Positions 34,045 through 45,775 of a DNA stretch of 64,000 nt are shown here, in pieces. Every line of letters begins with the position of its first letter. The first letter of the stretch is position 1. The translations under genes and the position numbers were made by a program. This stretch comes from Microbacterium endophyticum. GTDB lineage: Bacteria; Actinomycetota; Actinomycetes; Actinomycetales; Microbacteriaceae. The notes under the pieces were generated by a model. That model was not told the DNA's origin and did not search any database. It was given only the letters and a program-made list of their open reading frames with translations. The stretch covers positions 1,116,001 to 1,180,000 of the forward strand of contig NZ_CP049255.1 of the NCBI RefSeq assembly GCF_011047135.1, in the 5' to 3' direction.

Positions 34045-34713
34045 TCAACGCCTCCGATACCGGCGGGCTATCGATGTACCGAGCATCTGAACACCCTGCA
34101 CCAAAATAATCAGCGTCACACAGGTGATGACCATCGCGAAGCCGTCGTAGCGCTGATATCCGTAAGAAAGCGCCAGGTCACCGATGCCACCGGCACCGAC
34201 AGTTCCTGCCATAGCAGTCGCGTCAACGAGCCCCACGGTCGCGATTGTGACGGCAAGAATCAAGGATGCTCGCGCTTCGGGGAGCAAGAATCGCCAGAAG
34301 ATCTGCATGGGAGAGGCCCCCATCGACCGTGCGGCCTCGATGACGCCCTGCGGAACTTCGAGAAGTGAGTTCTCAACGAGGCGTCCAATGTAGGGCGCGA
34401 TCATCACCGTCAGTGGCACGATCGCGGCCCACACGCCGATACTCGTGCCGACGAGCACCCGCGTGAACGGCAGGATGGCGACGAGCAGGATGATGAACGG
34501 GAGCGAGCGCACAAGATTGACGAGCGTGCCGAGAACGATACTGACGGCACGATTCGGCAGCACGCCGCCGGGCCGTGTGAGTGCAAGAACTGCACCGATC
34601 ACGATGCCGAGGAGAGAACCCAGCACGAGTGATACTCCCAGCATCTGCAGCGTTTCGCCCAGCGCCTTGAAGAAGATTTCGGGCGTGATGAGAGTCCATT
34701 TGCCATCGTTCAT
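34045..34713 (-). CDS. metI: Methionine ABC transporter permease MetI
   Basis: The protein has 222 residues with five predicted membrane helices of the MetI type. It carries the EAA-like coupling loop GVIEAARSMGASPMQIF and the family stretch MAGTVGAGGIGDLAL. It forms the translocation path for D/L-methionine together with MetN and MetQ. The ATG overlaps the metN stop (ATGA). Confidence 0.94.
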   Translation of the reverse strand: MNDGKWTLITPEIFFKALGETLQMLGVSLVLGSLLGIVIGAVLALTRPGGVLPNRAVSIVLGTLVNLVRSLPFIILLVAILPFTRVLVGTSIGVWAAIVPLTVMIAPYIGRLVENSLLEVPQGVIEAARSMGASPMQIFWRFLLPEARASLILAVTIATVGLVDATAMAGTVGAGGIGDLALSYGYQRYDGFAMVITCVTLIILVQGVQMLGTSIARRYRRR

Positions 34714-35741
34714 GCGACGACCTCTTCAAGCTGCACAACGCGCGCGGCGAGAAACTCCCGCGCGGCAGCCACCCGCTCGGGCGGCCCACCGACCTTCATG
34801 ATCATGTGCCCGACCGTGTGCTCTTGAATCTCGGTCATATCGGCGTGCAAGACGTTGACCGAAACACCGATGTCGGTGATGAGGTCCGAAATGAGTGGCT
34901 GCGTGACCTCGTCATCAACGAGACGCAGACGCCACAGCCCCTCGCCGCCGAGGTGGGCGACAACACGCTCCGGTACGCCCTGCGGAATCACTGTCGACAC
35001 GAAGTCCCGCGTGATCTGCGCCTGCGGATGGAGAAACGTCTCCAGCACTGTGCCCTGTTCAACGACTTCGCCGGCGGCCATCACCGCGACGTCATGAGCG
35101 AGGTCTTTGATCACATCGAGCTCGTGTGTAACGACAAGGATCGTCGTGCCGTATTCACGGTTGACACTTCTGAGAAGGTCGATGATCTGTGTCGTCGTCG
35201 TGGGATCGAGCGCACTCGTCGCTTCGTCGGAGAGCAGAATTCTCGGATTGCGGACGAGGGCACGCGCGATGCCGACGCGCTGTTTTTGTCCCCCAGAGAG
35301 CTCGCCCGCGTGCTTATCCCCCTTTTCACCAAGCCCAACAAAATCGAGCACCTCATTGGCGCGAGTCCGTGCGCGGGTGGCATTCACCCCATCGAGACGC
35401 AGCGGAAGTGCCACGTTGTCACGCACGCTCACCGTGTCGAGCAAATTGAACTGTTGAAAAATCATGCCGGTGCGTTTCTGCGCCTCACGGAGCGTTCGCC
35501 CGCTCAAAGCACCGACGTCGACACCATCAACGAGGACGCGACCGGTTGTGGGCTTCTCGAGTCCATTTACGAGTCGGATAAGTGTCGACTTGCCAGCGCC
35601 GCTGTAGCCGATGACACCGAAAATCGATCCGGGAGTGACCGTGAGATCAACGCCGCGAAGGGCCGCCGTTTCGGCAGCCCTTCCGGTGAACGTCTTCGAG
35701 ACCTGTTCGAAGACGATTCCGCCCGCTGTTGGCGAACTCAA
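34710..35741 (-). CDS. metN: Methionine ABC transporter ATP-binding protein MetN
   Basis: The protein has 343 residues. The ABC ATPase domain shows Walker A GYSGAGKST, signature LSGGQKQR, Walker B ILLSDEATSALD and the switch His in VVTHELD. A C-terminal NIL (ferredoxin-like) domain of about 75 residues follows; in MetN this domain binds methionine and causes trans-inhibition. The start is TTG 35741, overlapping the metQ stop codon as TTGA; there is no ATG or GTG nearby, which is unusual and suggests low, coupled initiation. Confidence 0.95.
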   Translation of the reverse strand: MSSPTAGGIVFEQVSKTFTGRAAETAALRGVDLTVTPGSIFGVIGYSGAGKSTLIRLVNGLEKPTTGRVLVDGVDVGALSGRTLREAQKRTGMIFQQFNLLDTVSVRDNVALPLRLDGVNATRARTRANEVLDFVGLGEKGDKHAGELSGGQKQRVGIARALVRNPRILLSDEATSALDPTTTTQIIDLLRSVNREYGTTILVVTHELDVIKDLAHDVAVMAAGEVVEQGTVLETFLHPQAQITRDFVSTVIPQGVPERVVAHLGGEGLWRLRLVDDEVTQPLISDLITDIGVSVNVLHADMTEIQEHTVGHMIMKVGGPPERVAAAREFLAARVVQLEEVVA

Positions 35742-36583
35742 TTGAACCAGGACGGCAGCTGGTAGCCGTCATACTGCGGGTTCGACTCGATGTACTCGAT
35801 GAACTCCGGCGACTCGTAGGCATCCTTGATCGCCAGAGCCCAGTCCGATTCGAGATCATCGGCGCGCACGGTGACGACGTTCGAAAACTCAATGGGTTGA
35901 TCTTCGACGGCGAGCGCGTCGTCGTAATCGAGTCCACCCGACACGATGAAGTTGCCCTGAATGGTCGCGTAGTCGACATCTTGAAGGGCGGGCACCTGCT
36001 GCGCGTTCTCGATCGGTGTGATGTTGAGGTTCTTCGGGTTCGAGGTGATGATCGACAGATCTGCGGTGTTCGGGTCGTCGACGTCTTCGAAATCGATCCA
36101 ACCGACATCACGCAACACCAGGAGGCCGCGGTAGAGGTTGGATGGCGAGTTCGGCACGGTGATGGTCGCCCCGTCCTTCACATCATCGAGCGACGTCGAC
36201 TTGCCGCCGAAGAGTGCCATCCGTGGCGTCGGAATCTGAACAAGCGCGGCGTTGTCGATTCCCTCTTGAGTGTTCACAAAGTCGAGGTAGACCGGGTGCT
36301 GCATGATGTTCGCGTCGATCTCGCCGTTGGCGACAGCGACGTTGATCACAATGCCGTCGGTGAAGTCCTGCGTGTCGACGGTGTAGCCCTCGTCTTCGAG
36401 GATTGGCAGGATGCCGCCCTCGAACATCTCCTGGTACGGCCCCGGGTTGAATCCGATGGTGATTTCGGTCTTCTCAGCGCCCGAGGCATCCGTGGTTTCG
36501 GCGTCGGCGCCGCTGCACGCCGTTGTTGCCAGAAGGAGTGCGGTGAACGTAGCCCCAATAAGGGCAGTACGCGTGACATTCAT
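35738..36583 (-). CDS. metQ: Methionine-binding lipoprotein MetQ
   Basis: The protein has 281 residues from ATG 36583 (AAAGAGG at 5 nt). A lipoprotein signal ends with Cys23 (TTACSG). The NLPA-family body has typical segments (ITIGFNPGPYQEMFEG, NGEIDANIMQHPVYLDF, LYRGLLVLRDVGWIDF, YATIQGNFIVSGG). It captures methionine for MetNI. First gene of the metQNI-aminotransferase-luxS operon. A long open extension upstream of the ATG is leader DNA, not coding. Its 158-nt leader contains a strong hairpin but no riboswitch class I recognise. Confidence 0.94.
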   Translation of the reverse strand: MNVTRTALIGATFTALLLATTACSGADAETTDASGAEKTEITIGFNPGPYQEMFEGGILPILEDEGYTVDTQDFTDGIVINVAVANGEIDANIMQHPVYLDFVNTQEGIDNAALVQIPTPRMALFGGKSTSLDDVKDGATITVPNSPSNLYRGLLVLRDVGWIDFEDVDDPNTADLSIITSNPKNLNITPIENAQQVPALQDVDYATIQGNFIVSGGLDYDDALAVEDQPIEFSNVVTVRADDLESDWALAIKDAYESPEFIEYIESNPQYDGYQLPSWFN

Positions 36584-38182: not shown

Positions 38183-38207
38183 ACAGGGAACACGGAGTGT
38201 TCCCTGT
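38183..38207. terminator. Hairpin in the 38104-38305 gap (possible second terminator)
   Basis: Perfect 10-bp stem ACAGGGAACA/TGTTCCCTGT with a 5-nt loop. It lies downstream of the long hairpin at 38225-38294 in the direction of the minus-strand operon, so it could be a back-up terminator. It is also upstream of the carboxypeptidase start and might affect its promoter instead. Confidence 0.5.
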
Positions 38208-38224
38208 CCTGTCAGCCGGCACCA

Positions 38225-38294
38225 GCGGAGGAGATGACCCGGACGGAGAGCCGCCGTGGCGGCATCCCTCCTCCGTCCGGGGGATCTCCTCCGC
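38225..38294. terminator. Very long hairpin ending the VTC/Cthe_2159 operon
   Basis: GCGGAGGAGAT...ATCTCCTCCGC (11-bp perfect outer arms), a 2x2 mismatch, CCCGGACGGAG...CTCCGTCCGGG (another perfect 11 bp), and an inner GCCGCC/GGCGGC stem: a nearly continuous 70-nt palindrome 11 nt past the stop codon at 38306. It is well placed as an intrinsic, symmetric terminator or an RNA-stabilising 3' structure, although there is no U-run. Confidence 0.65.
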
Positions 38295-38305
38295 TCGCGC
38301 TCGCG

Positions 38306-39859
38306 TCAGGGCCGCTGTCCCCCTCCGCCGCCGCCCATCTGTCCCGTCGTGGCCGTTCCCTCGGTGACCGTGACGGAGGTCGAACCGTTCACCGTCACCG
38401 TGTAGGAACCATCTTCGATAACGGCGGCCGAGCTGTAGACAACCGACCCGAAGGCCTTATCGGCTACGAAGCTTTCGATCACGGTGCCGGAGGAATCGGC
38501 GATCTCGACCGTGTCTCCCTCGCTGCCCGCTACGAGAGCCGAGAGCCAGGCCTGGGTGGAACCTTCCCCTGGTGATACCGCCATTCCCGAACTGCCGACT
38601 GCGCGCAGCGTGCCACCGGTCACTGAAAAGGTTCCGTTAGCATCGAGCGCGCCGTCCCCGTCGCTTGTCGGTCCCGACACGGTCACGGTGCCGCCCGAGA
38701 TGGTCATCGACCCGTTCGAGTCGAGTCCATCACCACCACTGTTCACCGTCACCATACCGCCTGTGATATCCAAGCTTTCACCGGTGTCACCCATGCCTCC
38801 TCCGCCCCCACTGGAGGTGGCCAAGCCCGCGGCGTTGATCCCATCGTCGGATGCCGTTAGCTGGATGTCGCCGCCCTCGATCGAGACGTACGCGCCCTCT
38901 AGTGCTTCGGTCGACTGCTCCACGATCGTGTTTCCCGCAGCGATCGCGGCGTAGAGGTCGGCGTGGATGCCATCTCCGGCGGCCGAGATAGTAAGGGCAC
39001 CGCCGGTGATGATGGCGTCAGTGAGCGCGTCGACACCGTCATCGGATGCGGTAGCAGTGATTTCACCGCCCGAAATGTAGACGTAGCCTCGCGTGTCCTC
39101 CTCGTCGTTGTCACTCTTGAGAGCGTCACCACCAGCGTTGAGGACGATCGTCCCGCCCTCAATCGTGAGCGAGTCTTTACCTCTCAAGGCGTCGTCAGCG
39201 GCCGTGACGGTGATCTGTCCGGAGAGGATCGCGAGGTCGTCCTCGCTCGTGATGCCGTCGTTGCCATTGCCATTGACCGTGAGCGATCCGGTTCCGGTGA
39301 TCGTGAGGTCCGCTTCACTGAAAAGCGCGGCGTTCACGTCGGCGTCCTCCGCGTAGGAGGAGGCGTCCGACAGCGTGTTGTCGCTCCCGGCGGCGACCGA
39401 GATCGCGACGTCATCGGCGGTGAGCACTGAAATCGCAGGTCCTGCGGAGTTCTCGATGTCGACGCCATCGAGGATCAGCACGACCTGCGCGTCATCGGGT
39501 GCTGACACGGTCACTGTCCCGGCGAGCGACCCCGACAGTAGATAGACCCCCGCGGCGGTAATGGTGACCGTCGACCCAGAGATCTCGACGCCCTCGGCGG
39601 AGCTTTCGGCGCTGTCGCCGGTGAGGGCGATGTCCACGGCGTCGGCGGCGGACCACTCGTCGTCGCGGACCACCGTAGCGTTCTCGTTCGCAGCTATCAC
39701 CGCCTCGGCGATCGTCCCGGAGCTCACGACGGCGGGTTCGGTCGTCGCGCTGGACTCCGTCGTAACCGCGGGTGTTGCCACGATGCTCGTGCAGCCGGCG
39801 AGCACGAGGGCACCCAGGGTGAGCGCAATGGCGGGCAGGATTAGACGGCGGTTTCGCAT
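38306..39859 (-). CDS. Cthe_2159-like carbohydrate-binding beta-helix lipoprotein
   Basis: The protein has 517 residues from ATG 39859 (GAGGAG at 5 nt). A lipoprotein signal ends at AGCTS with Cys23. The mature protein is a run of short beta-helix-like repeats rich in Gly/Thr/Asp (GTVTVSAPDDAQVVLILDG, TITGTGSLTVNGNGNDG, SDNDEEDTRGYVYISGG, TSSGGGGGMGDTG), the pattern of the Cthe_2159 family, whose founding member binds acidic polysaccharide. It ends in a Gly-rich tail. Last gene of the five-gene operon. Its start lies 19 nt inside the VTC gene. It is probably surface-anchored and binds or guides the polymer made by the operon (inference). Confidence 0.82.
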   Translation of the reverse strand: MRNRRLILPAIALTLGALVLAGCTSIVATPAVTTESSATTEPAVVSSGTIAEAVIAANENATVVRDDEWSAADAVDIALTGDSAESSAEGVEISGSTVTITAAGVYLLSGSLAGTVTVSAPDDAQVVLILDGVDIENSAGPAISVLTADDVAISVAAGSDNTLSDASSYAEDADVNAALFSEADLTITGTGSLTVNGNGNDGITSEDDLAILSGQITVTAADDALRGKDSLTIEGGTIVLNAGGDALKSDNDEEDTRGYVYISGGEITATASDDGVDALTDAIITGGALTISAAGDGIHADLYAAIAAGNTIVEQSTEALEGAYVSIEGGDIQLTASDDGINAAGLATSSGGGGGMGDTGESLDITGGMVTVNSGGDGLDSNGSMTISGGTVTVSGPTSDGDGALDANGTFSVTGGTLRAVGSSGMAVSPGEGSTQAWLSALVAGSEGDTVEIADSSGTVIESFVADKAFGSVVYSSAAVIEDGSYTVTVNGSTSVTVTEGTATTGQMGGGGGGQRP

Positions 39860-40662
39860 GAGGACTCCTCGCTTCGGTTCTGGTGTGTTCGGTTGCGGTC
39901 GGTGAAGTCGGTGCGCAGGAGCCGAGCCCACTTGTTGCGCGGCAGTTCGGGATGCAGCGCGGCCAGTCCCGTGCCGTATTTACTGATGCTCACGGGACGA
40001 TGCCCGGCGCGCCACAGCGCGCGGTCAAAATCCGACGCCCGCGCTCCAGATTTCGTCTCGATGATCGCCATTCCCGGAGTGACGAGCGCCGGCCCCGCGG
40101 CATCGCGCCACTCGAGATCGACATCGACCGTAGAGCGAGCGCTCGCGTCGGGAGCAACGAATGTCGCGCGCTGGTACAGCGTGGTCAGCCGTACGTCCAG
40201 CGCCTCGGCGCGCGGAGCGCCGACACCGATCGCATCGAGCGCATCGGCGGCGTAGCCGCGGGCCTCTTCGGTGAGCAGATGCCGGTCGGACGGCTCGTAC
40301 TCGATGCGGTCTTTGACCGTCGCGCTGCGGGCTCCGCGGGTCTTCAGCTCCAGGAAGGCCGTCCGCGAATCCACGTACGTGCGCGTGCGCAGCTTGAACC
40401 GTCGCCGGCGGGGCTGGGCCGCCATCCGGAAGCTCAGCAGATCGGGAGTGTCGAAGTAGACCGACTCGTAGCGGAACGCACGTAGCCCGTCTATTTCGAG
40501 AATCCGGATGCCGACGGCCAGGCTCTCGATCACCCGGGCCGCGGCCTCCCGGCTCAGCACGTACTTGCGGTCCACCCGGGTCATGAGTGCCGCTTCACCC
40601 ACGAGGCCCTGCAGATCGATAGGCGCGAACCGCTCGAGGGGAAGAGAAGTCGCGACGCTCAT
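39841..40662 (-). CDS. VTC-domain (polyphosphate-polymerase-like) protein
   Basis: The protein has 273 residues and is soluble. It has the triphosphate-tunnel pattern of VTC domains: RVDRKYVL, VYFDTPDLLSFRM, the basic cluster RRRRFKLRTRTYV, AFLELKTRG, SATVKDRIEY, AIIETKSG and SKYGTGLAALHP. In yeast Vtc4 the same tunnel polymerises polyphosphate from ATP. Bacterial relatives beside DUF4956 genes are common but unproven; they may synthesise polyphosphate or use a nucleotide to modify a polymer. The key basic and acidic tunnel residues appear intact. It is encoded with 4-nt overlap after DUF4956. Confidence 0.85.
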   Translation of the reverse strand: MSVATSLPLERFAPIDLQGLVGEAALMTRVDRKYVLSREAAARVIESLAVGIRILEIDGLRAFRYESVYFDTPDLLSFRMAAQPRRRRFKLRTRTYVDSRTAFLELKTRGARSATVKDRIEYEPSDRHLLTEEARGYAADALDAIGVGAPRAEALDVRLTTLYQRATFVAPDASARSTVDVDLEWRDAAGPALVTPGMAIIETKSGARASDFDRALWRAGHRPVSISKYGTGLAALHPELPRNKWARLLRTDFTDRNRTHQNRSEESSCETAV

Positions 40663-41261
40663 CGGCCCGCTCCGCTCATTCGCGATTCCTGCACGGCACC
40701 CGAACGCGCCCGCGGGGGTTCCGAGCGGAAGCGCACGTCCACCAGAGTTGTGTCATCGACCAGGTCGAGGTGCTGCACGGTGAGGGAGGTGACCGTGGCA
40801 CCGAGCCGACGCTCGACTTCGGCGCGGAGCTCGCTCTCGTCAGGCATCGCCCGATCGACGTGGATCGTCTGATGACGCGAGCGGCTGAGGAGCCGCGGGT
40901 GATCGGCAGCCCACATCACGGCAAGGATCAGGGCCACGAGCCCGATCGGAATCCATACGTCGGTCGCCGGAAGACCGGTGACCAGACCTATCGCGAGAGC
41001 CGCGAAGTAGTAGGCGACCTCGCGCTGCGAGATCTCAGATGAGCGGAGCCGGATGATCGACAGGACCCCGAAGAGGCCGAGACCGAGACCGACGGCCACC
41101 TCGCTCGAACCGAGCACCGTCGTGACGGCGAGCACGCCCACGTTCACGCCGAGGAAGGCGACGACAAGATCACGGCGGCGGTGGCGCTGGTAGTAGATCG
41201 CCAGACTCAGGATGCCGGCAGCGACCAGGTCGACGCCGATCAGGAGGAATGTCGCGTTCAT
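40659..41261 (-). CDS. DUF4956 membrane protein
   Basis: The protein has 200 residues. Four to five hydrophobic segments fill residues 5-125 and include the family stretch FGVLSIIRLRSSEISQREVAYYF. A soluble C-terminal domain (about 135-185) follows. DUF4956 proteins sit next to VTC-domain proteins so regularly that they are thought to form one machine, by analogy with the membrane subunits of the yeast VTC complex; this is inference. Overlaps of 4 nt at both ends keep it in step with the glycosyltransferase and VTC genes. Confidence 0.85.
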   Translation of the reverse strand: MNATFLLIGVDLVAAGILSLAIYYQRHRRRDLVVAFLGVNVGVLAVTTVLGSSEVAVGLGLGLFGVLSIIRLRSSEISQREVAYYFAALAIGLVTGLPATDVWIPIGLVALILAVMWAADHPRLLSRSRHQTIHVDRAMPDESELRAEVERRLGATVTSLTVQHLDLVDDTTLVDVRFRSEPPRARSGAVQESRMSGAGR

Positions 41262-42400
41262 GATGTCCTTTCGAGGGGGTGCGTATCACTCTTCAGTCGA
41301 GTCGAGGCCCCTATGTTGTTTCTATGCCCGGACTTTGAGGGGATGAAGCCTTTGCCCTCTGTCTCCCCTGTGCTCGCGCCGAAGACGAATCGCCGCTGCA
41401 CCTGGTAGCTCGTGATGAACAGCACGCCTTCGGTGAAGATCTTTGCGACCAGCAGCGGGAGCCCCATTCCGACGAGCGCTTCCATCCAGACGACGTTAGA
41501 AGCCAAGAGCACCCCCGCCAGCAGGGCGTATCTCGCCGCGTGCCGGAGTGCGTGCGACCGCCCGCCCCTGCGGAAGACCACGCGGCGATTGACGAGGAAG
41601 TTCATCGACGCGCTCAGGAGCCGCGCGGCCACGATTGAGAACACGAGCGAGCCGGTGAGCGACGAGAACACGAGCAGGGCGACCGCGTCGATGAAGAACG
41701 CCAGGAACGAGGATCCGGCGAACAGCATCAGCGGAATCGTGATGCGCAGCGAGTCGACGACCGGCCGGAAGTGGCTCGACGCGTTCTGCTCCAGATAGAT
41801 CGTCTCGATCGCGACTTCTCTCACGTCGAACCCGGCCCGGCGCACGCGCAGCAGCATCTCCGTCTCGTACTCGAAGCGCTCGCCCGGCACCTCCATCAGC
41901 CATGGCAGCATGACCGCCGGTATCCCGCGAAGTCCAGTCTGAGTGTCAGATGCCGGCCACCCGGCCGCGATCCGGAACAGGCCTCGGGAGACCGCGTTGC
42001 CGAACCTGCTGCGCACCGGCACCGTGCCCGTGAAGTCTCGCGAGCCGAGCACGAGCGCGACGTGCCCCTCCGCGGCATCCGTGCGCAGCTCGTCGACGAT
42101 ACGCGTGACGTCCGTCGTGGTGTGCTGGCCGTCCGCGTCGGCGGTGACGACGTCTTCGCCGGGCGCCGCGTGACGTACGTAGGCGAAGCCGGTCTTCAGC
42201 GCGACCCCTTTGCCGCGATTGACCTCGTGATGGAGGACGACCGCGCCCGCGTCACGCGCGGCGCAGAGGGTTTCGGCGTACTCCGGCCCGCTGCCGTCGT
42301 CGACGATCAGGACTTCGATGTCGGCATCCCGATCGAGCAGCGCGGTGACGATATCGATGAGCGCACGACCCGGCTGGTAGGCGGGGATCAGGATGATCAT
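41258..42400 (-). CDS. GT2 glycosyltransferase fused to a GtrA-type membrane domain
   Basis: The protein has 380 residues. Residues 1-230 form a dolichol-phosphate-mannose-synthase-like family 2 glycosyltransferase: MIILIPAYQPG, the nucleotide-sugar Asp pair in VLIVDDGSG, DADGQHTTTD, LGSRDF and RGIPAVMLPWLM. Residues about 235-365 contain four hydrophobic helices of the GtrA/DPMS type (AGSSFLAFFIDAVALLV). Such fusions charge a polyprenyl phosphate with a sugar or flip it. It overlaps its neighbours by 4 nt on both sides. It is the likely source of the sugar for this operon's polymer. Confidence 0.9.
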   Translation of the reverse strand: MIILIPAYQPGRALIDIVTALLDRDADIEVLIVDDGSGPEYAETLCAARDAGAVVLHHEVNRGKGVALKTGFAYVRHAAPGEDVVTADADGQHTTTDVTRIVDELRTDAAEGHVALVLGSRDFTGTVPVRSRFGNAVSRGLFRIAAGWPASDTQTGLRGIPAVMLPWLMEVPGERFEYETEMLLRVRRAGFDVREVAIETIYLEQNASSHFRPVVDSLRITIPLMLFAGSSFLAFFIDAVALLVFSSLTGSLVFSIVAARLLSASMNFLVNRRVVFRRGGRSHALRHAARYALLAGVLLASNVVWMEALVGMGLPLLVAKIFTEGVLFITSYQVQRRFVFGASTGETEGKGFIPSKSGHRNNIGASTRLKSDTHPLERTS

Positions 42401-43398
42401 GGCGCCACGTACAGGATGTCGCTCGTGCCGCGTTCGCCGCCGTTGGACGGCTGATTGAGCACGGTGCCGTTGAAGTAGATCGTTGAAGAGCCGCCGCCGT
42501 CGAGGTTGTACGCCGTCGTGGCACCGAGCCCCGTCATGATCTCGGCGAGTTCGGTGAGGGTGACGCCCCGGCTGTATCCCTCGTTTCGCCCGTCAACGAC
42601 GACGAACACATAATGGTTCTCGTTGATCACACCGACCGCGGTGCGTGGCTGTTCACCCTGGATCGAATGGTTGCCGACGTTCGTGTCGACCTCGACGTCT
42701 TCGATGCCGTCCACGACCGCGCCGTCTTCCACGATCGCCGGACCGAACGACAGGGTGTTCCACACCCCGGCCGCGAGCAGCTCGTTCGCTGTGTTGGTCG
42801 TCTCGTCGTACACCTCGACATGTCCGTCGAGATAGAACGCAAGTCCTTCACGAGCGCCTTCGTCGCGATAGACAACTCCGTTGCGGATCTCGATGCCGGT
42901 GTCACGGAAGCCGTAGTAGTCACCGTTGATCGCGAGGATCGCATCATTGGCCGCCGCGATCGTGCTCGTGGTCGCGATGATGTTCTCGCCGAACTGGTCG
43001 TTCGCGAACGCCGAACGGAGTTGCGTGGCATCGGCGACCACGACGTCGGCGACGTAGTAGGTGATCGCGTCGTCGCCGCTACCCGTCGTGATCATCGAGA
43101 CGGTGATCGTGGTGTCGTCGTCCGCGTAGGAGTTCTCGGTGACGACGCCGTCGGTATCGGCCTCGGTCGTGGTGGCGACCGAGGAGTTCTCTTCCTCGTA
43201 GGTCGAGACGTCGGCGATCTCGACGTGCTCGATCAGGAAGCGATCGATCGCCCACGCGGATGTTCCGCCCGCGGCCAGCATAATGACCAAGCCCCCGGCG
43301 ATCAGAGAGTTGCGGAGCTTGCGCCGTTTCTTCCTCGCAGCCCGGACGGTGCGTAGCTCGGACGGTGCGTCGGCGGAAATCGGCGTGGTCGGTTCCAT
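42397..43398 (-). CDS. Membrane-anchored phosphodiester glycosidase (NAGPA domain)
   Basis: The protein has 333 residues. A basic cytoplasmic start is followed by one transmembrane helix (about 30-52), and an acidic Thr/Glu-rich linker leads to the NAGPA-type domain (about 110-333). Conserved features are INGDYYGFRD, NGVVYRDEGAREGLAFY, LSFGPAIVEDG, RTAVGVINENHYVFVVVDGR and YNLDGGGSSTIYFNG. Mammalian NAGPA removes GlcNAc from a phosphodiester; the bacterial domain is predicted to hydrolyse sugar-phosphodiesters such as those of teichoic-acid-like polymers. First gene of the five-gene operon, overlapping the glycosyltransferase by 4 nt. Confidence 0.88.
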   Translation of the reverse strand: MEPTTPISADAPSELRTVRAARKKRRKLRNSLIAGGLVIMLAAGGTSAWAIDRFLIEHVEIADVSTYEEENSSVATTTEADTDGVVTENSYADDDTTITVSMITTGSGDDAITYYVADVVVADATQLRSAFANDQFGENIIATTSTIAAANDAILAINGDYYGFRDTGIEIRNGVVYRDEGAREGLAFYLDGHVEVYDETTNTANELLAAGVWNTLSFGPAIVEDGAVVDGIEDVEVDTNVGNHSIQGEQPRTAVGVINENHYVFVVVDGRNEGYSRGVTLTELAEIMTGLGATTAYNLDGGGSSTIYFNGTVLNQPSNGGERGTSDILYVAP

Positions 43399-43597
43399 GG
43401 TTCATGGATACGGACGAGCTCTATGACGATCCTCGCGATCATCTACGCAGGAGGTAAGAAAGCCTATGCATCTCTTATGCCGCCCGGACATTGGCACTGC
43501 ACTCGTTACCTGCCCGAAACGGCACCGACGCAGCGTAGCTCTAAGTTCAGCATCAGGCTCGCACACCCCGACGCAGGCCATTGACCGCGGGAGAATC

Positions 43598-45775
43598 ATG
43601 AGTGGTAACGCAGTTCGTCGTGAAGCGATCAGAGATGTCGAAGCCTTTGCACCGCCGGCTGTCAGCTTCGATGAGTCCGAAACACCAGGTACGATCTTCG
43701 GATCCAACGTATTCAGCACGATCGTGATGCGCCAGCGGCTTCCGAAGCCCATCTTCAAGTCGGTCATGGCGACCATCGAGCACGGTGCCGTGCTCGACCC
43801 TCTCGTCGCGGATGCCGTCGCCTCGGCCATGAAGGATTGGGCGCTGGAACGCGGCGCCACCCACTATGCGCACGTCTTCTACCCGCTCACCGGACTCACC
43901 GCCGAGAAGCACGACAGCTTCTTCGAGCCGGTGGGCGATGGTTCGGCTCTGGCGGAATTCGCCGGTAAGACCCTTATTCAGGGCGAGCCCGACGCCTCAA
44001 GCTTTCCGAACGGCGGACTCCGCAACACGTTCGAAGCCCGCGGCTACACCGGGTGGGACGTCACAAGCCCCGCCTACGTGCTCGAAAACCCCAACGGCAA
44101 CACACTCTGCATCCCGACGGTGTTCGTCTCGATGACAGGTGAAGCCCTCGACCACAAGACGCCGCTGCTGCGATCGCAGCAGGCGATGGGCGAGCACGCC
44201 GAGCGCATCCTCGCGCTCTTCGGCCACAGCAAACCCGGCAAAATCGTCTCGTTCTGTGGACCCGAACAGGAGTACTTCCTCGTCGACCGTCACTTCTTCC
44301 TGGCGCGTCCCGACCTTCTCAACTCAGGCCGCACGCTGTTCGGCACGAAGCCTCCGAAGGGCCAAGAGTTCGACGATCACTACTTCGGTGCTATCCCGGA
44401 GCGCGTGCTCGGCTTCATGATGGACACCGAACGCGAGCTGTTCAAGCTCGGAATTCCGGCGAAGACGCGTCACAACGAGGTCGCGCCCGGCCAGTTCGAG
44501 ATTGCGCCCACGTTCGAGCGCGGAAACATCGCTGCCGACCACCAGCAGTTGCTGATGACGACGTTCAAGACGATCGCGAAGAAGCACGGCATGGAGTGCC
44601 TGTTCCACGAGAAGCCTTTCGAGGGCGTCAACGGTTCGGGCAAGCACGTCAACTTCTCGCTCGGCAACAGCGACCTCGGGTCTCTCCTCGTCCCGGGCGA
44701 CACCCCCCACGACAACGCGCAATTCCTGGTCTTCTGCGCCGCCGTCATCCGTGCCGTTCACCTCTATGGCGGACTGCTCCGTGCCTCGGTCGCATCCGCA
44801 TCGAACGATCACCGCCTCGGTGCGAACGAGGCGCCGCCGGCGATCATCTCGATCTTCCTCGGTGACCAGCTCGCCGACGTGTTCGAGCAGATCGCGGCGG
44901 GAGCTGCCACATCGTCGAAGGGCAAAGGCACGATGCAGATCGGCGTCGACACCCTTCCGGTATTGCCGACCGACCCGGGCGATCGCAACCGTACGAGCCC
45001 GTTCGCTTTCACCGGCAACAGGTTCGAATTCCGAGCGCCGGGATCACTGCAGACGGTGAACGGTCCGATGGTCACGATCAACACGATCATGGCTGATTCG
45101 CTCGACTACGCGGCAACCGAGCTCGAAGCAGCGGTCGCCGACGGCACCGACTTCGACACCGCTGTGCAGAACCTGCTCACGAAGATCATCACCGAACACG
45201 GCGCCGTCGTGTTCAACGGTGACGGTTACGGCGATGCATGGCCCATCGAAGCCGAAAAGCGTGGACTCAAGAACCTGCGCACGACCCTCGATGCACTGCC
45301 CGAACTCATCTCGGACGAAGCGCTGGCCCTGTTTGAGAAGTACAAGGTCTTCAACGAGCGAGAAATGCACAGCCGGTACGAAATCGGGCTCGAGCAGTAT
45401 GCGCTGACGATCGGGGTCGAGGCGCGCCTCACGCTCGAGATCGGCGCCACATCGATTCTGCCCGCGGCGATGAGGTATCAGACCGAGCTCGCTCACAACG
45501 TGGCAGCGCTGAAAGCGGCCGGAATCGAGCCTGATCTTGCGCCCCTCAATGAGGTGACCGAACCTCTCACCGCGCTGCGCGCAGCGCTCGCAGCTCTCAG
45601 CGAAGCATTGAGTGAAGAGGTCGGACACGAAACGCTTGCCGAGGCGGAGCACGCGCGCGAGTCGCTTCTGCCTGCAATGGCAGCTGTGCGAGCGGCATCC
45701 GACGATATCGAATGCGTCATCGCGGATGACCTGTGGCCCCTGCCGACATACCAAGAAATGCTCTACATCCTGTAG
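43598..45775 (+). CDS. glnN: Glutamine synthetase type III (GlnN)
   Basis: The protein has 725 residues, the typical GSIII length (dodecameric, much larger than GSI/GSII). It contains the GSIII N-terminal domain ([23 protein letters not shown] opening, [10 protein letters not shown]), then the catalytic core with [44 protein letters not shown] and [20 protein letters not shown]. It makes glutamine from glutamate and ammonia. The start is ATG 43598 (GGGAG at 4 nt). A 44-codon in-frame extension from ATG 43466 also has AGGAGG, but at a long 11-nt spacing. Expressed alone; ends at a strong terminator. Confidence 0.95.

What the first reader, a model, noticed from the sequence alone, without database searches (positions are those of the whole stretch)
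38306..43398. Five-gene translationally coupled operon: phosphodiester glycosidase, GT2-GtrA, DUF4956, VTC-like polymerase, Cthe_2159 surface lipoprotein
Sequence shows five same-strand genes with 4-nt ATGA overlaps at three junctions and a 19-nt overlap at the fourth, closed by a 70-nt hairpin. Known families: VTC domains in yeast make polyphosphate; DUF4956 often accompanies bacterial VTC proteins; GT2-GtrA proteins load polyprenyl phosphate with sugar; NAGPA domains cut sugar phosphodiesters; Cthe_2159 proteins bind acidic polysaccharide. Inference: the operon builds, transfers and trims a phosphate-containing surface polymer and displays a lipoprotein that binds it. I know of no characterised system with all five parts. 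This is my best candidate for an undescribed system.
Basis: partly seen in the sequence, partly recalled or inferred. Interest (0 to 1): 0.7.

Follow-up and report, generated by a model that had tools for sequence, protein, structure and literature searches.

The report
Membrane phosphate-polymer operon in Microbacterium
Five tightly overlapping genes in a Microbacterium-like bacterium look like a cell-surface machine built around a relative of the yeast enzyme that makes and exports polyphosphate, a pairing that recurs in many genomes but whose function has not been shown.

Summary
In detail: five minus-strand genes (38306-43398), all over Pfam cut-offs, with overlaps of 4, 4, 4 and 19 nt and a strong hairpin after the last stop. 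It is a recurrent unit: the same five in the same order in 43 of 80 related loci, and DUF4956-VTC-Cthe_2159 in 70 of 80. In 149 genomes drawn across the phylum, DUF4956 and VTC matches fall in the same 16 genomes, always adjacent (17 of 17 pairs). The neighbouring third gene is Cthe_2159 or a CotH-like kinase. In 119 same-genus genomes, close relatives of NAGPA and GT2 occur in the same 24, all with DUF4956; in 4 of these they lie elsewhere in the genome. The VTC protein models as the Vtc4 fold and keeps aligned Vtc4 tunnel residues, including the catalytic lysine, but also one acidic position that Vtc4 lacks. Best reading: DUF4956-VTC is a bacterial polyphosphate synthase-exporter whose product an extracytoplasmic partner binds or uses; GT2-GtrA and NAGPA add a lipid-linked sugar step. 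Catalysis, export and product are inferred. A CotH-VTC-DUF4956 trio is already in print beside Pel genes; here the pair occurs without PelG. New variant of a known, uncharacterised kind.

The parts
42397..43398 (-). NAGPA: phosphodiester glycosidase domain (residues 152-331) behind one N-terminal hydrophobic stretch (from about residue 33); motif AYNLDGGGSS
   Evidence: Pfam PF09992 E 7.8e-38; PDB relatives include NAGPA 6pku E 4.5e-10 and 6ozd E 1.2e-12; YN[LI]DGGGSS in 45 of 46 related proteins, hydrophobic N-terminus over my threshold in 29 of 46
41258..42400 (-). GT2-GtrA fusion: GT2 domain (3-132) and GtrA/DPMS membrane domain (227-340); predicted polyprenyl-phosphate glycosyltransferase/flippase; carries DADGQ and DTQTGL
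   Evidence: Pfam PF00535 and PF04138; ArnC chains 9bhc E 0.00057 and 8vxh E 0.0007 over the first 100 residues; motifs in 46 and 47 of 47 related proteins
40659..41261 (-). DUF4956: five predicted helices of membrane type and a C-terminal beta-alpha-beta-beta domain (129-179); motif GLFGVLSIIRLR; R71, R73, G92 invariant in 19 diverse members
   Evidence: Pfam PF16316 E 5.4e-64; AF2 pLDDT 83.4, pTM 0.64; alignments A3, A4; motif in 78 of 79
39841..40662 (-). VTC: triphosphate-tunnel (TTM) protein, relative of the Vtc4 polyphosphate polymerase domain
38306..39859 (-). Cthe_2159 beta-helix carbohydrate-binding protein with a lipoprotein-type signal (LVLAGC)
   Evidence: Pfam PF14262 E 2.1e-76; PDB 4peu/4phb E 1.4e-39; a permissive lipobox pattern fits 73 of 73 related proteins tested
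38200..38310 (-). Inverted repeat after the last stop codon; possible terminator without T-run
   Evidence: fold z -6.74; hairpins with z under -3 downstream of Cthe_2159 in 22 of 73 related loci (mononucleotide shuffles), so it is not a constant feature
43399..43597 (.). Intergenic stretch shared with the divergent glutamine synthetase III gene; presumed promoter region
   Evidence: position only; no sigma-70-like site found

Best explanation
DUF4956 and VTC form one membrane machine that works like the eukaryotic VTC complex. The VTC tunnel domain on the cytoplasmic side builds a phosphate polymer (most likely polyphosphate) from ATP, and DUF4956, a five-helix membrane protein with conserved arginines placed at the cytoplasmic face, takes over the translocating role that the Vtc TM helices have in yeast and feeds the chain outward. 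A surface-anchored protein receives it: here the Cthe_2159 lipoprotein, whose family binds acidic polysaccharide; elsewhere a CotH-type kinase. GT2-GtrA loads and flips a polyprenyl-phosphate sugar, and NAGPA, outside, cleaves or transfers that sugar-phosphodiester, so that the surface polymer is sugar-capped or trimmed. Shown: gene identities, VTC fold and residues, co-occurrence. Inferred: the product, its export, the binding, the sugar step and the orientation of DUF4956.
Against: No activity was measured by anyone for a bacterial VTC-DUF4956 pair in what I read. D31, at the second acidic-patch position, is acidic in 20 of 21 diverse VTCs, where Vtc4 has Thr, so the hydrolase-type metal site is not cleanly absent. 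The single window sequence alone finds no Vtc chain in the PDB. DUF4956 has no significant structural match and no detected relation to Vtc1; that it is a channel is a guess. Deleting the S. intermedius polymerase homologue SIR_1593 alone did not reduce aggregation notably or abolish Pel; only the DUF4956-like and CotH deletions did reduce aggregation (PMC12345266, section 20). NAGPA of mammals acts on alpha-linked sugar phosphodiesters (recalled) whereas an inverting GT2 should make a beta-linked lipid sugar, so the two may not share a substrate.
Confidence: 0.42

Rival explanations
1. VTC is a phosphotransferase or oligophosphate maker that decorates a surface polysaccharide or protein rather than a free polyphosphate exporter: the phosphate goes through DUF4956 (or a lipid) to an acceptor made outside, with CotH or Cthe_2159 as acceptor-handling partner.
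For: Published link to the Pel exopolysaccharide (PMC7112168, PMC12345266): a DUF4956-like deletion gave more Pel signal and less aggregation, a CotH deletion less Pel. CotH is a kinase family and its versions here carry export signals. Cthe_2159 binds cellulose and polygalacturonic acid (PMC6712302, passages). NAGPA and a lipid-sugar enzyme in the operon fit a glycopolymer.
Against: PelG is over its cut-off in none of the 16 VTC genomes, and no polymerising glycosyltransferase is in the window's operon. Vtc4-type residues point to chain growth on phosphate.
Confidence: 0.27
2. The pair is regulatory: DUF4956 is an MgtC-like membrane protein (TM helices plus ACT-like domain) and VTC a sensor or hydrolase of triphosphates; together they tune phosphate or ATP metabolism for envelope synthesis.
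For: PMC12345266 describes the S. intermedius homologue SIR_1592 as MgtC TM domain plus ACT domain. Our model has the same layout. D31 keeps an acidic residue. OmpR-type regulators and kinases lie near the operon: 40 hits in 480 near gene slots against 5 in about 1013 far slots.
Against: Profile comparison with MgtC aligns the glycine-rich motif in register but at 8.4% and 0.15% probability; the PDB MgtC domain is hit only at E 0.99: inconclusive. A regulator does not explain fixed partnership with surface proteins.
Confidence: 0.18
3. The operon is an adhesion or plant-polysaccharide binding system; Cthe_2159 is the working part and the other genes mature or anchor it.
For: Cthe_2159 proteins bind cellulose and polygalacturonate (PMC6712302, passages); the match to 4peu covers residues 86-309; last gene of the operon.
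Against: The DUF4956-VTC core occurs with CotH in place of Cthe_2159 in 10 of 16 genomes at the same locus, and in G067 and G145 Cthe_2159 lies far from the pair.
Confidence: 0.08

Closest known systems
Pel accessory genes cotH - PPP (VTC) - DUF4956 - DUF4832 of streptococci, clostridia and bifidobacteria (PMC7112168, passages; PMC12345266, passages and section 20)
   Same: The same VTC and DUF4956 families side by side with an extracytoplasmic third protein
   Different: The window's genome has no CotH and no PelG match; the third protein is Cthe_2159, and NAGPA + GT2-GtrA are added. The 2025 paper says the CotH-VTC-DUF4956 synteny was not found outside the Pel locus; here it stands at 11 loci in 10 genomes without PelG.
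Clostridium perfringens NELoc-2 genes CP4_0460-0465 (VTC, 'tubulin/FtsZ', resolvase, VTC, 'tubulin/FtsZ', CotH; PMC2879425, passages)
   Same: VTC beside a 222-226 aa membrane-located protein and CotH; that the 'tubulin/FtsZ' proteins are DUF4956 is my inference
   Different: No NAGPA, GT2-GtrA or Cthe_2159 in the stretch I saw; not fetched or tested here
Eukaryotic VTC complex (Vtc1/3/4)
   Same: TTM fold, aligned tunnel residues, a membrane partner
   Different: No SPX domain, no TM helices in the VTC protein itself; DUF4956 shows no detected homology to Vtc1
Three-component GtrA/GtrB-type glycosylation systems (PMC7117936, passages)
   Same: GT2 and GtrA domains, here fused in one protein
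   Different: No third-component transferase in the operon; a NAGPA-domain protein stands in its place
Cthe_2159 of Clostridium thermocellum (PDB 4peu, 4phb)
   Same: Homologous over residues 86-309, E 1.4e-39
   Different: Longer (517 aa), lipobox, in an operon with VTC

Membership tests
VTC/TTM polyphosphate polymerase (Vtc4-like domain) | TTM beta-tunnel fold closest to Vtc proteins | tested here: met
VTC/TTM polyphosphate polymerase (Vtc4-like domain) | Tunnel Arg/Lys, metal Glu and catalytic Lys of Vtc4 (R264, R266, E426, K458) | tested here: met
   R92, R94, E202, K228 invariant in 69 close and 21 diverse sequences and aligned to those residues
VTC/TTM polyphosphate polymerase (Vtc4-like domain) | Acidic patch of TTM hydrolases absent | tested here: inconclusive
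   Two of three ygiF patch positions are basic (R29, K204), the middle one is D31, acidic in 20 of 21
VTC/TTM polyphosphate polymerase (Vtc4-like domain) | Makes polyphosphate from ATP | not testable with these tools
   needs enzyme assay
Eukaryotic VTC complex | SPX domain and TM helices on the catalytic subunit | tested here: not met
   Pfam scan finds only the VTC domain in the 273-aa protein
Eukaryotic VTC complex | Vtc1-type membrane channel subunit | tested here: inconclusive
   DUF4956 model has no significant match in the PDB library
Pel-associated CotH-PPP-DUF4956 cluster | VTC and DUF4956 adjacent | tested here: met
Pel-associated CotH-PPP-DUF4956 cluster | CotH gene and pel genes | tested here: not met
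   G000 has no CotH match and no PelG match; other pel genes were not searched
MgtC family (for DUF4956) | Sequence or fold relation to MgtC | tested here: inconclusive
   hhalign 8.4% and 0.15%; PDB profile E 0.99
Three-component GtrA system | GT2 and GtrA parts | tested here: met
Three-component GtrA system | Third-component glycosyltransferase in the same operon | tested here: not met
   none of the five genes has such a domain; elsewhere in the genome not tested
NAGPA phosphodiester glycosidase | NAGPA domain | tested here: met
   PF09992 130.8 bits, cut-off 25; PDB NAGPA chains
Cthe_2159 | Cthe_2159 domain | tested here: met
   257.1 bits, cut-off 25.8; 4peu E 1.4e-39

The most novel reading that the evidence does not exclude
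Bacteria have their own membrane polyphosphate factory, VTC + DUF4956, that pushes polyphosphate to the cell surface, and the alternating third partners are its users: exported CotH kinases draw their phosphate from this polymer because there is no ATP outside, while Cthe_2159 lipoproteins hold it as an acidic, probably calcium-bridged surface matrix that NAGPA and the GtrA-type enzyme cap with sugar.
Probability: 0.18. Interest if true: 0.87.

Novelty: new variant of a known kind. Interest (0 to 1): 0.56.

Why it matters
If the reading holds, a whole class of bacterial VTC proteins, now known only as accessory genes of unknown role, becomes a second route to polyphosphate beside PPK and one that ends outside the cell. 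It would give exported CotH-type kinases a phosphate source and explain why two unrelated surface proteins alternate beside the same pair. The genus carries PPK1 in all 119 genomes sampled but DUF4956 in 32, so presence/absence strains for a clean genetic test exist.

Tried and rejected
MgtC kinship of DUF4956, suspected by eye and stated for a homologue in PMC12345266, was tested and left inconclusive. The first HMM survey was discarded: models built from stop-to-stop frames also caught shadow frames; replaced by a codon-usage gene caller of mine. Structure libraries gave nothing for DUF4956 (PDB; viral): the absence of a hit shows little. The one-sequence PDB search with VTC found only stomatins at E about 0.05, judged chance; the profile search found Vtc4. 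A tubulin/FtsZ reading of the C. perfringens neighbour was not followed. Paper searches for an existing description of VTC + DUF4956 + Cthe_2159 listed none with all three; these cover only the held open-licence library. Whether other pel genes than pelG occur was not searched. A DUF4956-VTC co-fold could not be run with the tools.

Bias to keep in mind: the 80 loci were picked by similarity to the window's DUF4956 and capped (80 kept of 164), so 43/80 and 70/80 describe close relatives; contig ends count as misses, and in L053 my caller found no DUF4956. Score gaps for the genus counts were drawn after seeing the lists: below them are 7 weak DUF4956 genomes (20-24 bits), 5 weak NAGPA genomes (at most 44 bits) and many GT2 hits of at most 79 bits (105 of 119 genomes have some GT2 hit). 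P-values ignore shared ancestry.
Full report
WHAT IS THERE. The five genes lie at the stated coordinates on the minus strand with overlaps of 4, 4, 4 and 19 nt. Pfam names NAGPA, GT2 + GtrA, DUF4956, VTC and Cthe_2159, all over their cut-offs. Start of the last gene: ATG 39859, giving MRNRRLILPAIALTLGALVLAGCTS, a lipoprotein-type signal by eye. A 111-nt stretch past its stop folds with z -6.74. The divergent neighbour upstream is a glutamine synthetase III, the next gene downstream a D-Ala-D-Ala carboxypeptidase-family protein. The window lies in a 2.9-Mb single-contig genome; the nearest named DUF4956 relatives are Microbacterium, 79-85% identical.

IS IT A UNIT. DUF4956 of the window was used to fetch loci; 164 stretches encoded a relative and the best 80 were kept. 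With a gene caller of my own, all five genes stand in the same order and strand in 43 of 80, and DUF4956-VTC-Cthe_2159 in 70 of 80. Some of the remaining ten run into contig ends (for example L047); in L053 my caller found no DUF4956, L045 has DUF4956 but no VTC beside it, L068 has Cthe_2159 in front. In L081 (Clavibacter) and L080 the NAGPA and GT2 homologues lie downstream, in L087 (Rothia) they are divergent. The flanking genes differ between loci, so the block itself is what is conserved. On a tree of joined DUF4956 + VTC (77 rows; quick method) presence of the upstream NAGPA-GT2 pair (45 rows) or absence (32) needs at least 9 changes, so the pair has joined or left repeatedly. These loci are close relatives by construction.

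AN INDEPENDENT SAMPLE. In 149 genomes drawn evenly from the phylum (the window's own included), DUF4956 has a match in 16 and VTC in the same 16; one of the DUF4956 matches (G138, 29.0 bits) is under the Pfam cut-off. All 17 pairs (G145 has two) are on one strand with at most 278 nt between the matched domains. In G131 both frames hold a stop, so that copy may be broken. CotH matches occur in 11 of 149 genomes, all 11 among the 16; at 11 loci of 10 of them CotH lies by the pair, in G140 it is on another contig. Cthe_2159 matches occur in 7 of 149, 6 of them among the 16 (the seventh is G048); beside the pair in 4 (G000, G063, G098, G171) and elsewhere in the genome in G067 and G145. G138 has neither, but its contig ends at the pair. 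Among 14 control genomes the same three (Bacteroides ihuae, Corynebacterium glutamicum, Methanosarcina acetivorans) ring for both VTC and DUF4956; the first also for Cthe_2159, the other two for CotH. So the third slot is filled by one of two unrelated proteins. Both look extracytoplasmic: a permissive lipobox pattern fits 73 of 73 Cthe_2159 proteins tested, and 9 of 10 CotH proteins scanned have a hydrophobic N-terminal stretch, three of them with lipobox-like cysteines by eye (the eleventh locus, L102, was not scanned).

THE NAGPA-GT2 PAIR. In 119 genomes of the genus, close DUF4956 relatives (165 bits or more) occur in 32, close NAGPA relatives (342 bits or more) in 24 and close GT2 relatives (251 bits or more for the best piece) in 24. 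The two sets of 24 are identical and lie within the 32. In 20 the pair is beside DUF4956; in G008, G236, G237 and G248 it is elsewhere: 0.95 Mb and 77 kb away in the single-contig genomes G008 and G248, on other contigs in the other two. In G008 and G248 the distant DUF4956-VTC-Cthe_2159 block is present, and the pair sits among unrelated genes. Under random placement 24 of 24 within 32 of 119 has P 1.2e-18, and the four unlinked cases alone P 1.3e-4; both ignore shared ancestry.

DUF4956. Five helices and a beta-alpha-beta-beta domain, pLDDT 83.4, pTM 0.64. By the positive-inside rule (my reading) the C-terminal domain and both arginine clusters (R26-R30, R71/R73) face the cytoplasm. R71, R73 and G92 are invariant in 19 diverse members. 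No structural relative was found; kinship with MgtC remains open.

REGULATION. OmpR-type regulator and kinase genes cluster by the block: 40 hits in 480 gene slots within three genes, 5 in about 1013 slots farther off; a regulator in 23 and a regulator-kinase pair in 17 of 80 loci. Four of the phylum loci (L090, L092, L096, L098) also have such a pair, out of eight looked at. The window itself has none beside the operon.

HOW IT MOST LIKELY WORKS. In yeast, VTC makes polyphosphate in the cytosol and threads it through a channel with basic TM residues (PMC9911596, passages). The bacterial pair has the tunnel enzyme and a separate, obligate membrane partner with conserved arginines. I therefore take it as a synthase-exporter whose product meets an extracytoplasmic protein: Cthe_2159, whose family binds acid sugars (PMC6712302, passages), or CotH, a kinase family that outside the cell would lack ATP. 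All 119 genus genomes have PPK1, so ordinary polyphosphate storage needs no VTC. GT2-GtrA plus NAGPA would add and remove a sugar on a phosphodiester. Product, export and the sugar step are inference.

AGAINST THE LITERATURE. CotH, a poly-phosphate polymerase and DUF4956 are described beside pelDEADAFG (PMC7112168, passages). In S. intermedius, deleting the four accessory genes left Pel production on; the DUF4956-like and CotH deletions cut aggregation by more than half in sputum medium, and the polymerase deletion is not reported to (PMC12345266, section 20). That paper states that its analyses fail to find the three-gene synteny outside the Pel locus (passage). In our sample PelG is over its cut-off in 2 of 149 genomes (5 at E 0.001), none of them among the 16, and CotH-VTC-DUF4956 stands at 11 loci of 10 genomes without it. 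A VTC-CotH cluster in C. perfringens was printed in 2010 (PMC2879425, passages). DUF4956 is named in 3 papers of the library; none of the searches listed a paper on VTC + DUF4956 + Cthe_2159 with NAGPA and GT2-GtrA.

VERDICT. Real, recurrent, uncharacterised; a new variant of a kind already glimpsed. Interest 0.56.

Noticed in passing
L090-L104 (phylum loci), 11 loci in 10 genomes: CotH by the VTC-DUF4956 pair in genomes without a PelG match, against a published statement that this synteny was not found outside Pel loci.
   Followed up: partly
80 loci L010-L089; L090, L092, L096, L098: OmpR-type regulator and sensor kinase genes are strongly enriched within three genes of the operon, though not in the window.
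   Followed up: partly
G131 (L100): The VTC and DUF4956 frames each hold one in-frame stop and the CotH there lacks a visible export signal: probably a decaying copy.
   Followed up: no
G248 and G145: Two DUF4956 loci in one genome.
   Followed up: no
L045: DUF4956 without an intact VTC beside it in my gene calls: loss of VTC, or a frame problem.
   Followed up: no
window 43598-45775: Divergent glutamine synthetase type III gene sharing the intergenic stretch with the operon.
   Followed up: no
window 34045-36583: ABC transporter genes (ATPase 34710-35741, permease 34045-34713, lipoprotein 35738-36583) that look like a MetNIQ-type methionine importer by eye, next to an aminotransferase-like gene.
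   Followed up: no
L116, L118, L119 (G008, G236, G237): The detached NAGPA-GT2 pair sits each time beside a small left-handed-helix-type acyltransferase-like repeat protein (135-149 aa).
   Followed up: no
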